DNA of 64,000 nucleotides from Bordetella parapertussis (GTDB lineage: Bacteria > Pseudomonadota > Gammaproteobacteria > Burkholderiales > Burkholderiaceae_E). The notes under the pieces were generated by a model that was not told the DNA's origin, did no database searches, and saw only the letters and a program-made list of their open reading frames with translations. How positions within the stretch are numbered: the first letter of the stretch is position 1; each line of letters starts with the position of its first letter. Location: assembly GCA_945883285.1 (NCBI GenBank), contig CAMCXH010000001.1, positions 1 through 64,000 on the forward strand. Reading direction: 5' to 3'. Of the stretch, positions 10,561 to 14,870 are shown one piece after another. A program made the translations under genes and the position numbers.

Positions 10561-11475
10561 TTAGCTCTTCTCGGGTGGCGCGGGCGGCGGACTCGACGAA
10601 AACGCGATACTCGCCAGCGCCGCAGCCGCCGACCGGGTCTCGACCCCGAGCTTTTCAAACACATGTTCGAGATGCTTGTTGACCGTGCGCGGGCTCATGC
10701 CAAGGATGTCGGCGACATCCCGATTGGTCTTGCCCTTCGAGACCCACGACAGGACCTCGACTTCGCGCGGCGTGAGCGCCGCACTGGCCAGCCGTGACGG
10801 TGCGGGTGCATCCGACTTGCGCACGCTCAGCAGCCACATCACTTCGCCCAGACCGACCGTGCCGACCCGTTTGGCGGCCAGGGTCTGATCGCCCTTGTCA
10901 ATGGGCACGGCTTCGTCCTCGGACTCGCCGACTTCATGCAGCCAGCGCATCTGCTCCTGTGCACTGTTAGCCGGGAAAAAGTCGGCCAGCCAGCGCACCG
11001 CCTGCGGCGATTGCCAGGCAATGCGCTGACGCGCATCGACCAGCAGCACGCCCAGCCCGCCGATGTCGATCGACTCGCGCGCCATGCGCACCGCGCGGGC
11101 ATTGCGCACATGCGTGGCCAGCCGGACCATGACCTCCTCGGCCCGCACCGGCTTGACCACATAGTCGACGCCGCCGGCATCAAAGCCCTTGACGATCTGG
11201 CTGGTCTCGGACAACCCGGTCATGAAGATCACCGGCACATGCGCCCAGGCCGGATCCGACTTGATCTGTCGGCAGGTCTCGAAGCCGTCCATGCCAGGCA
11301 TCAGCGCATCCATCAGGATAGCGTCGGGCGAGACCAGTTCGAGCCGCGCGAGTGCCGATGCGCCGTCGATCGCCACGATCACGGTATAGCCGTCGGCCTC
11401 AAGTTCGCTGCACAAGGCGCCCAGTGATTGCGGCGCGTCGTCGACCAGCAGAATGATGTTGTCAGGACTGCTCAC
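10561..11475 (-). CDS. Response regulator, REC plus LuxR-type HTH
   Basis: 304 residues from a GTG at 11475 that overlaps the kinase stop by four bases (GTGA) and has GAGGAGG five bases upstream. An N-terminal receiver has ILLVDDAP, phosphoacceptor Asp56 in DAILMDALMPGMDGF and VVKPV for the conserved lysine. A middle PAS-like region includes GVLLVDARQRIAWQSPQAV. The C-terminus has a LuxR/FixJ HTH (ALTPREVEVLSWVSKGKTN, MSPRTVNKHLEHVF). It is surely the partner of the kinase just upstream, and by position the likely regulator of the divergent amide-uptake operon. Confidence 0.88.
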   Translation of the reverse strand: MSSPDNIILLVDDAPQSLGALCSELEADGYTVIVAIDGASALARLELVSPDAILMDALMPGMDGFETCRQIKSDPAWAHVPVIFMTGLSETSQIVKGFDAGGVDYVVKPVRAEEVMVRLATHVRNARAVRMARESIDIGGLGVLLVDARQRIAWQSPQAVRWLADFFPANSAQEQMRWLHEVGESEDEAVPIDKGDQTLAAKRVGTVGLGEVMWLLSVRKSDAPAPSRLASAALTPREVEVLSWVSKGKTNRDVADILGMSPRTVNKHLEHVFEKLGVETRSAAAALASIAFSSSPPPAPPEKS

Positions 11476-14400: not shown

Positions 14401-14870
14401 CACGCCGCCAGCGGCCAGCCGAAAGTCATCTGCAGCGCCAGCGCCAGGATGGCGGCCTCGAGCGCAAAAAAGATGAAGGTGAAGCTCGCATAGATCAGCG
14501 AGGTCACCGTCGAGCCGAGGTAGCCGAAGCCCGCGCCGCGGGTCAGCAGATCCATGTCCAGGCCATAGCGCGCGGCGTAATAGCTGATCGGCAAGCCGGT
14601 GAGAAAGATGATCAGTCCAACCGTCAGGATTGCCCACAGGGCGTTTGAAAAGCCGTAGCTGAGCGCAATCGCGCCGCCGATGGCTTCGAGTGCGAGAAAG
14701 GAAGTGGCGCCAAACGCAGTGTTGGCGACCCTGAACTCGCTCCACTTGCGAAAGCTGCGCGGTGTGTAGCGAAGCGCGTAATCCTCGAGCGATTCGTTGG
14801 CGACCCAGGAGTTGTATTCGCGCCGGATGCGAAAAATCTTCTGGGTCTGCGCAACAGGGGACTTCGACAT
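11472..14870 (-). CDS. NCS1-type permease fused to hybrid sensor histidine kinase
   Basis: 1132 residues. About 25-480 is a multi-spanning transporter of the purine/cytosine permease (NCS1) type (VANTAFGATSFLALEAIGG, KINVTNAYAGSLAWSNF). Residues 503-540 hold a cysteine-rich cluster (CSVCENPF, CPAYGAPICSLCC, CHDRCK) that could bind zinc. Two more membrane segments follow (about 570-630), then a coiled coil, an HisKA domain with His686 in GMTHELRTPLNG, an ATPase domain (NLLGNAVRF, DTGIGIAAPD, TGLGLTITHLL) and a receiver with Asp973 (DAILLDISMDDMNGWD). A short C-terminal helical region resembles an Hpt-like tail but lacks a clear HxxKG. It probably senses its substrate by binding or transport and signals to the adjacent regulator. 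Confidence 0.88.
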   Translation of the reverse strand: MSKSPVAQTQKIFRIRREYNSWVANESLEDYALRYTPRSFRKWSEFRVANTAFGATSFLALEAIGGAIALSYGFSNALWAILTVGLIIFLTGLPISYYAARYGLDMDLLTRGAGFGYLGSTVTSLIYASFTFIFFALEAAILALALQMTFGWPLAACYLVASLGVVPLVMYGITAISKLQLWTQPIWIGLALLPFIAVLLKNPQAYRDFTTLVGGVSESSGFDALMFGAAATVAFSLVVQIGEQVDYLRFLPEKTALNRGKWWAAVLVAGPGWIVPGMLKMLGGAFLAFLALQVEIPVSRAIEPTQMYLAGFAYVFESPALVLAVTTLFVIVSQVKINVTNAYAGSLAWSNFFARLTHSHPGRVVWLVFNVAIAVLLMTLGIFQALERVLGLYSNVAIAWVGALVADLVINKPLGLSPKHIEFKRAYLYDINPVGLGAMVVAAALGMAAYVGSFGATAQAFAPFIALFVSLGVSPLIAWWTKGRYYLARHDRSPWKPGQLVTCSVCENPFESEDMAQCPAYGAPICSLCCALESRCHDRCKTQSRMTEQVQAAIADLLPASIGRRINVRMAHYLVVSVSLIALVAVILGVVHEQNSLAVGGVASGGATPMIQAFALLSLAAAVGAWWIVLGSESRQMAEDESNRQNHLLMREIEAHRRTDAELQSAKDLAEAANQAKTRYVAGMTHELRTPLNGILGYAQIMLKDTQIQGERRAAVQTIHQSGEHLRGLIESLLDLARIEAGKLRLDIAPLPMHEFLDDVVRMVAPQAAAKGLAFELRTEGRIPRYVRADARRLRQILINLLGNAVRFTDTGSVTLVLDHRREVSCFRVIDTGIGIAAPDLERVFLPFERGSAGRRTGEPGTGLGLTITHLLTQLMGGELTVVSTPGEGSTFSVRVYLGETFDPGVSATPRHRPVSGYIGERRTLLVVDDHPTQRQMLAGMLLPLGFRIREAGTGRECLESVFEHQPDAILLDISMDDMNGWDVAREIRRGGLQSLPIIMVSANAFENQPAMLEAAGCQAFVDKPVIESELLAVLQRELELEWVAELAVPSWVAMPTPQTADLPLEHARTLLRLARMGHPQGLQRALDAMVAEYPGQAGQADALRELVGRFDWPQLIERLDRAVGEANEEAQ

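What the first reader, a model, noticed from the sequence alone, without database searches (positions are those of the whole stretch)
11472..14870. Permease-kinase chimera as the probable amide or urea sensor
A complete NCS1-like permease, a cysteine-rich cluster (residues 503-540) and a hybrid histidine kinase are one chain. Its gene overlaps that of a LuxR-type regulator and is divergent from a transport/amidase operon. Transporter-kinase fusions are known for the SSSF type (CbrA); an NCS1 type with a metal-binding-like linker is less familiar. It may sense flux, not only occupancy, and the cysteines could add a metal or redox input.
Basis: partly seen in the sequence, partly recalled or inferred. 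Interest (0 to 1): 0.75.

Follow-up and report, generated by a model that had tools for sequence, protein, structure and literature searches.

The report
Transporter-fused sensor kinase for amides/urea
This gene joins a transporter of the cytosine-permease kind to a bacterial sensor kinase, and its widespread relatives sit beside, and share a DNA switch site with, the genes for taking up and splitting formamide and urea; so it is very probably the sensor for these nitrogen sources, a large receptor family for which I found no published description.

Summary
Confirmed: 11472-14870(-) encodes one 1132-aa chain: NCS1-fold permease, eight-cysteine cluster, two-helix membrane hairpin, then HisKA-HATPase-REC. 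The gene overlaps a LuxR-type regulator by 4 bp and is divergent from urtABCDE-fmdA-fmdB-amiE. Pfam misses the permease part, but profile-profile comparison (99.8%) and a model closest to CodB and Mhp1 establish NCS1. The family is wide (52 of 398 sampled Pseudomonadota genomes) and tied to amide/urea nitrogen: 39 of 40 genomes with a close formamidase carry it, and 12 of the 13 family genomes without that formamidase have it beside urea-transporter or urease genes. A palindrome, ATACGTCAnnTGACGTAT, lies 68 bp upstream of urtA and occurs once in the 3.5-Mb genome; in relatives it follows the target operons, even when the kinase gene lies elsewhere. The cysteine cluster also occurs in a kinase-less permease beside fmdA, so it belongs to the transporter module, not to a kinase linker. 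The module is also fused to PAS-kinases, Hpt-kinases and GGDEF-EAL. Ligand, transport and phosphotransfer are inferred, not shown. Kind: transporter-kinase fusion, like CbrA (SLC5) and KsAmt5 (Amt), but NCS1-based; no published description found in the held library. New variant of a known kind.

The parts
11472..14870 (-). NCS1-permease/hybrid histidine kinase, 1132 aa
   Evidence: single open frame; Pfam HisKA, HATPase_c, Response_reg; family in 459 candidate stretches of genome contigs
13401..14792 (-). NCS1-fold permease module (residues ~27-490)
   Evidence: hhalign to CodB/NCS1 set 99.8%; AF2 model closest to CodB Z 26.6 and Mhp1 Z 24; model mean pLDDT 63
13251..13364 (-). eight-cysteine cluster C-x2-C-x11-C-x7-C-x2-CC-x5-C-x3-C (residues 503-540)
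   Evidence: present in all family members scanned except one kinase-less member; AF2 of this region pLDDT ~80-90, beta hairpins plus helix
12969..13175 (-). two-helix membrane hairpin between cysteine cluster and kinase (residues 566-634)
   Evidence: hydropathy; two long helices in AF2 model
12645..12845 (-). HisKA, phospho-acceptor His686
   Evidence: Pfam; H-box position
12183..12503 (-). HATPase_c
   Evidence: Pfam
11766..12095 (-). receiver domain of the hybrid kinase
   Evidence: Pfam
10561..11475 (-). LuxR/NarL-type response regulator (REC + GerE), 4-bp overlap with the kinase gene
   Evidence: Pfam; gene call; co-conserved with the kinase
15095..15112 (.). palindromic candidate operator CTACGTCAATTGACGTAT, 68 bp upstream of the urtA ATG
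   Evidence: motif found upstream of relatives' kinase genes; sole site in window and own genome
15181..16431 (+). UrtA-type binding protein
   Evidence: NCBIfam TIGR03407; start read from sequence
16509..17423 (+). UrtB permease
   Evidence: TIGR03409
17499..18635 (+). UrtC permease
   Evidence: TIGR03408
18769..19512 (+). UrtD ATPase
   Evidence: TIGR03411
19583..20272 (+). UrtE ATPase
   Evidence: TIGR03410
20316..21548 (+). formamidase FmdA
   Evidence: NF045496, 769 bits against a 500-bit cut-off
21559..21903 (+). FmdB zinc-ribbon protein
   Evidence: TIGR02605, NF053663
21930..22970 (+). aliphatic amidase AmiE
   Evidence: NF009802

Best explanation
It is a transporter-derived receptor kinase for short-chain amides (formamide first) and/or urea. 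Inferred steps: the amide binds in the substrate site of the NCS1-fold domain; the resulting conformation passes through the cysteine-stabilised cytoplasmic module and the two-helix hairpin to the dimerisation helices; His686 is phosphorylated; phosphate reaches the LuxR-type regulator, directly or through the kinase's own receiver; the regulator binds the palindrome at 15095-15112 and switches on urtABCDE-fmdA-fmdB-amiE. Shown by computation: the domain chain, the NCS1 fold, conserved pairing with the regulator and the operon, and the shared palindrome upstream of target operons. Not shown: ligand, phosphotransfer, regulator-palindrome binding, whether the domain also transports. Relatives beside urease or urea-transporter operons are best read as urea sensors.
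For: 76 of 80 closest relatives have UrtA beside the kinase, all but one of the exceptions being on short contigs. Of 114 further loci, over 90 have the fmd operon, urease or the urea ABC transporter in the fetched stretch. In 398 sampled genomes, close FmdA and the family co-occur 39 times, family only 13, FmdA only 1, neither 345; 12 of the 13 are urease- or urea-transporter-linked. Operator: log-likelihood 750 against ~41 for shuffles; one site in 3.5 Mb; 36 of 40 sites with at most 3 mismatches in 1.76 Mb lie within 500 bp upstream of a kinase, permease or target gene. Where the kinase is not divergent from the target, the site stays with the target. A scan of genomes with unlinked or urease-linked kinases found it shortly upstream of UrtA in five. 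It is also between urtA and the kinase on a Klebsiella plasmid and upstream of UrtA on pSymB, which were not used to find the motif. A kinase-less copy of the module lies before fmdA where the ABC genes are absent. [quoted passage not shown] P. veronii with this locus uses formamide as nitrogen source and lacks amiC/amiR there (PMC13209695).
Against: No ligand, phosphorylation or expression data. Relatives share ancestry, so counts are not independent. Context shows what is regulated, not what is sensed: ammonium status or an internal product could be the signal. In CbrA, kinase activity did not respond to the transported histidine (PMC7096432). 20 of 114 loci show no such operon nearby, some only because contigs end; several early-branching members with other outputs have no known target. 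The permease model is of modest confidence (mean pLDDT 63). The operator is not found at most urease-divergent loci of one Burkholderiales clade.
Confidence: 0.78

Rival explanations
1. The kinase controls the operon, but the signal is internal nitrogen status or a breakdown product (ammonium, formate); the NCS1 domain only transports or only anchors the kinase.
For: CbrA kinase and its transfer to CbrB are unaffected by the transported histidine (PMC7096432); the Methylophilus fmd cluster is also repressed by ammonia (PMC10781810).
Against: The permease module is far more conserved than a mere anchor needs: about 49 polar positions at 98% or more across fmd- and urease-linked members. A kinase-less copy takes the place of the ABC transporter before fmdA.
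Confidence: 0.12
2. A bifunctional transceptor: the NCS1 domain takes up the amide or urea itself, and transport flux, not occupancy, sets kinase activity.
For: Kinase-less close homologues exist, beside fmdA in one genome and beside a nickel-transporter (NicO) gene in another, as expected of uptake proteins for formamidase and urease. CbrA transports histidine (PMC7096432).
Against: Loci nearly always carry a dedicated ABC transporter as well. Glu62 is near-invariant in the kinase-fused forms but Gln in the kinase-less copy, so the sensor may have diverged from a transporter. KsAmt5 keeps the fold but hardly transports (PMC8534201).
Confidence: 0.25
3. The ligand is a classical NCS1 substrate (nucleobase, hydantoin, allantoin) that announces urea or amides to come.
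For: Fold closest to CodB and Mhp1.
Against: Formamidase, amidase, urease and urea transport recur at the loci; purine, pyrimidine or hydantoin genes were not systematically searched but were not noticed among the neighbours read. The module forms a separate branch that Pfam's NCS1 model does not match, with several changes between amide- and urea-type operons.
Confidence: 0.07
4. The cysteine cluster is a metal or redox sensor that gates the kinase, for example on nickel or zinc supply for urease or formamidase.
For: Eight invariant cysteines; folded module in the AF2 model.
Against: Present in the kinase-less permease and with all output types, which suits a structural zinc module of the transporter part equally well. 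Fold matches to RING fingers are weak (E 0.4); Pfam Prok-RING_1 is below its cut-off.
Confidence: 0.15

Closest known systems
CbrA/CrbS/RpuS, SLC5-STAC histidine kinases (PMC13022988, PMC7096432, PMC5715377, PMC9100948)
   Same: Complete transporter with a LeuT-type fold fused to a histidine kinase; CrbS/R and RpuS/R also use LuxR-type regulators for a catabolic or transport operon; SLC5-STAC modules are likewise fused to diguanylate cyclases.
   Different: SLC5 instead of NCS1; STAC four-helix linker instead of an eight-cysteine module plus two-helix hairpin; ligands histidine, acetate or pyruvate instead of (probably) amides/urea.
KsAmt5, ammonium-transporter histidine kinase of Kuenenia (PMC8534201)
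   Same: Nitrogen-source transporter fold fused to a histidine kinase; ligand binding drives a conformational change passed to the kinase.
   Different: Amt fold and ammonium ligand; here the pair is tied to an operator and an amide/urea operon.
NCS1 transporters CodB and Mhp1 (7qoa, 2jln, 2x79, 4d1a)
   Same: Fold (Z 26.6 and 24) and profile similarity.
   Different: They lack the cysteine cluster and any kinase; Pfam PF02133 does not match the present family.
fmd cluster of Methylophilus methylotrophus (PMC10781810)
   Same: Formamidase, FmdB and ABC uptake of short amides/urea; induced by formamide and urea.
   Different: The review names a putative positive regulator in the cluster and no transporter-kinase; presence of one there was not tested.
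AmiC/AmiR amide sensing (PMC13209695)
   Same: Controls an aliphatic amidase in response to amides.
   Different: AmiC is a binding-protein sensor and AmiR an antiterminator; PMC13209695 found neither gene at the P. veronii urt-fmd locus.

Membership tests
NCS1 (nucleobase-cation-symport-1) | PF02133 match above Pfam's gathering score | tested here: not met
   no match for the window protein or 17 homologues; a distant kinase-less relative does match
NCS1 (nucleobase-cation-symport-1) | NCS1 fold | tested here: met
   CodB Z 26.6, Mhp1 Z 24.1, above the next fold families at about 21
NCS1 (nucleobase-cation-symport-1) | profile-level homology to NCS1 members | tested here: met
   hhalign probability 99.8%, 384 columns
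NCS1 (nucleobase-cation-symport-1) | transport of a substrate with a cation | not testable with these tools
   needs uptake assays
Hybrid histidine kinase of a two-component system | HisKA with H-box, HATPase_c, receiver, cognate regulator | tested here: met
Hybrid histidine kinase of a two-component system | Hpt for phosphorelay | tested here: inconclusive
   no Hpt match in the C-terminal 96 residues; two relatives carry Hpt domains
SLC5-STAC histidine kinases (CbrA type) | SLC5 domain and STAC linker | tested here: not met
   the transporter domain is NCS1 by profile and nearest NCS1 by fold, with SLC5 structures at Z about 18; no STAC match in Pfam scans
Zinc-binding treble-clef/RING-type module (cysteine cluster) | fold match and zinc | tested here: inconclusive
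   invariant cysteines, confident small fold, only weak RING-like matches

The most novel reading that the evidence does not exclude
The NCS1-cysteine module is a portable receptor for urea and short amides that crossed from transporter to sensor, was plugged into several output types (hybrid kinases, plain kinases, PAS- and Hpt-kinases, GGDEF-EAL), and switched between amide and urea circuits several times while its regulator kept nearly one operator sequence across Alpha-, Beta- and Gammaproteobacteria, including conjugative Klebsiella plasmids.
Probability: 0.6. Interest if true: 0.82.

Novelty: new variant of a known kind. Interest (0 to 1): 0.72.

Why it matters
How Proteobacteria sense formamide and urea to induce urt-fmd and urease operons is largely open: the formamide review consulted describes induction of the Methylophilus fmd cluster by formamide and urea but only a putative regulator. 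This family gives a concrete, widespread candidate receptor, its regulator and its binding site, so the question becomes directly testable. It adds another transporter family to the few transporter-kinase fusions known. Kinase-less, kinase-fused and GGDEF-EAL-fused forms of one module, with parallel amide and urea lineages, make it a good system for asking how a transporter becomes a receptor and how ligand choice shifts.

Tried and rejected
Direct Pfam and PDB sequence searches for the permease part gave nothing; resolved by an intermediate homologue, profile-profile comparison and fold. Fold search with the cysteine region gave no significant match, so no zinc-finger family is claimed. Search for residues that separate amide- from urea-linked lineages: no column changed in all four urea lineages; a few changed in three (274, 392, 403 among others), not convincing. 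NCBIfam names such as TorS, BarA, ArcB reflect the kinase half only and fall far below their cut-offs. Mapping of the CodB substrate site was attempted from the profile alignment, but a gap falls in the helix concerned, so no residue equivalence is claimed. Ten paper searches found no description of an NCS1-kinase fusion.

Full report
OBSERVATION. The frame 11472-14870(-) encodes one 1132-aa protein. Pfam finds HisKA, HATPase_c and a receiver. Residues 503-540 hold eight cysteines. The next gene, 10561-11475(-), encodes a REC-GerE (LuxR-type) regulator and overlaps by 4 bp. On the other strand from 15181 lie UrtA, B, C, D, E, formamidase FmdA, FmdB and aliphatic amidase AmiE, all named by curated NCBIfam models (the UrtA start is read). 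It omitted a two-helix membrane hairpin (566-634) between the cysteines and the kinase.

IS IT NCS1? Neither Pfam nor a PDB sequence search recognises the N-terminal 490 residues. Three other lines do. A search with the kinase-less relative found a distant permease (29% identity, E 3e-33) that matches PF02133. A profile of the family aligns to a small NCS1 set led by CodB with 99.8% probability over 384 columns. The predicted structure (mean pLDDT 63) is closest to CodB (Z 26.6) and Mhp1 (Z 24), with other folds of the same general type at 21 or less. The NCS1 fold and ancestry are therefore taken as established; function as a transporter is not.

HOW WIDE IS IT? One scan gave 459 candidate stretches that encode relatives; the best 80 were kept. 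By genome search the family is in 52 of 398 sampled genomes of the phylum at full length or nearly so, and in 530 plasmid records, 342 of them Klebsiella.

CONTEXT. In 76 of the 80 closest loci UrtA is next to the kinase, usually with the whole urtABCDE-fmdA-fmdB cluster divergent. In 114 further loci: 56 with fmd only, 9 fmd plus urease, 10 urease, 8 urease plus urea-type UrtABC, 9 urea-type UrtABC, 2 UrtA only (one of these, L139, is the distant outgroup), 20 none in the stretch. Across the 398 genomes, a close FmdA and the family occur together in 39, family alone 13, FmdA alone 1, neither 345 (Fisher p about 1e-41, which ignores shared ancestry). Of the 13 without FmdA, 12 have the kinase beside urease or the urea ABC transporter and the thirteenth is a fragment. 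On a conjugative Klebsiella pneumoniae plasmid the same divergent cluster carries a formamidase of the other, nitrilase-type family, so the link is to the reaction, not to one enzyme family. The tree of the permease module places the window in an fmd clade; urease/urea-transporter members form one large clade and three further groups inside the fmd radiation (quick tree, moderate support).

FREE-STANDING AND OTHER FUSIONS. In one genome (locus L138) a 559-aa kinase-less protein with the same permease and cysteine cluster lies directly before fmdA-fmdB-amiE, with no ABC transporter in between, divergent from its kinase-fused paralogue. A second kinase-less member lacks the cysteines and lies beside a NicO nickel-transporter gene. 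The cysteine cluster is therefore part of the transporter module. Elsewhere the module is joined to plain kinases, PAS-PAS-kinase-REC, PAS-kinase-REC-Hpt, kinase-REC-REC-Hpt and PAS-GGDEF-EAL. The distant relative L139 lies beside a CN-hydrolase, a Peripla_BP_5 protein and an AmiR/ANTAR protein, again an amidase setting.

OPERATOR. Expectation-maximisation on 380 bp upstream of the kinase genes found the palindrome ATACGTCAatTGACGTAT in the fmd set (log-likelihood 750 against about 41 for shuffled sequences, 82 dereplicated sequences) and a weaker similar one in the urease set (86 against about 37). In the window it is at 15095-15112, 68 bp before the urtA start, the only site with up to 3 mismatches in 64 kb and in the 3.5-Mb genome. 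Over 1.76 Mb of related loci, 36 of 40 such sites are within 500 bp upstream of a kinase, permease, UrtA, UreA or FmdA start. Where the kinase gene is not divergent, the site stays with the UrtA operon (L199, L200, L203, L204, L253). A scan of genomes whose kinase is unlinked or urease-linked found it roughly 70-145 bp upstream of UrtA in G840, G625, G886, G914 and G999; some other hits there were unexplained, and reversed-pattern controls gave 0-3 per genome. It is also present on the Klebsiella plasmid and on Sinorhizobium pSymB (3 and 4 mismatches), which played no part in finding it. It is absent or weak at most urease-divergent loci of one Burkholderiales clade. That the LuxR-type regulator is what binds it is inference from constant association.

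MECHANISM. Best reading: the amide or urea occupies the NCS1 site; the change passes through the cysteine module and hairpin to the kinase; the LuxR-type regulator activates the operon. Shown: architecture, fold, association, operator. Inferred: ligand, direction of the response, phosphotransfer, DNA binding. [quoted passage not shown] veronii strain whose chromosomal amiE-fmdAB-urtABCDE locus lacks amiC/amiR grows on formamide as nitrogen source (PMC13209695). Caution comes from CbrA, whose kinase did not respond to the transported histidine (PMC7096432).

COMPARISON AND NOVELTY. Transporter-kinase fusions are a known kind: SLC5-STAC kinases and the ammonium-transporter kinase KsAmt5. This one uses a different transporter family, a different connector and a different (probable) ligand class. 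Ten searches of the held library found no description; a genome paper lists a hybrid kinase and LuxR-type regulator beside an urt operon without analysis (PMC13296017). Subscription literature was not searchable. I rate it a new variant of a known kind.

Noticed in passing
window 22980-25416(+): A CbbQ/NorQ-type AAA protein and a VWA-domain protein follow amiE and recur next to amiE in relatives; PMC13209695 reports the same AAA type beside a plasmid amiE. Function in amide use unknown.
   Followed up: partly
L148:6849-10520(-): The NCS1-cysteine module is fused to PAS-GGDEF-EAL, a cyclic-di-GMP output, a few kb from CbbQ- and VWA-type genes.
   Followed up: partly
L276 (Klebsiella plasmid NZ_CP110144.1 61874-83484): Conjugative IncF plasmids of Klebsiella carry this sensor with urtABCDE and a nitrilase-type formamidase; 342 Klebsiella plasmid records match.
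   Followed up: partly
window 6756-7759(-): HepT-like ribonuclease and nucleotidyltransferase genes overlap, a likely HEPN/MNT toxin-antitoxin pair.
   Followed up: no
L252:5520-7543(-): A kinase-less member without the cysteine cluster lies beside a NicO nickel-transporter gene near a contig end, suggesting a urea permease for urease.
   Followed up: partly
L139:5949-10984(+): A distant NCS1 permease lies beside a CN-hydrolase, a Peripla_BP_5 protein and an AmiR-type ANTAR regulator, a possible second amide system.
   Followed up: partly
L146:5950-18817(+): One genome has two kinase copies 9 kb apart, one at the fmd cluster and one without an obvious target.
   Followed up: no
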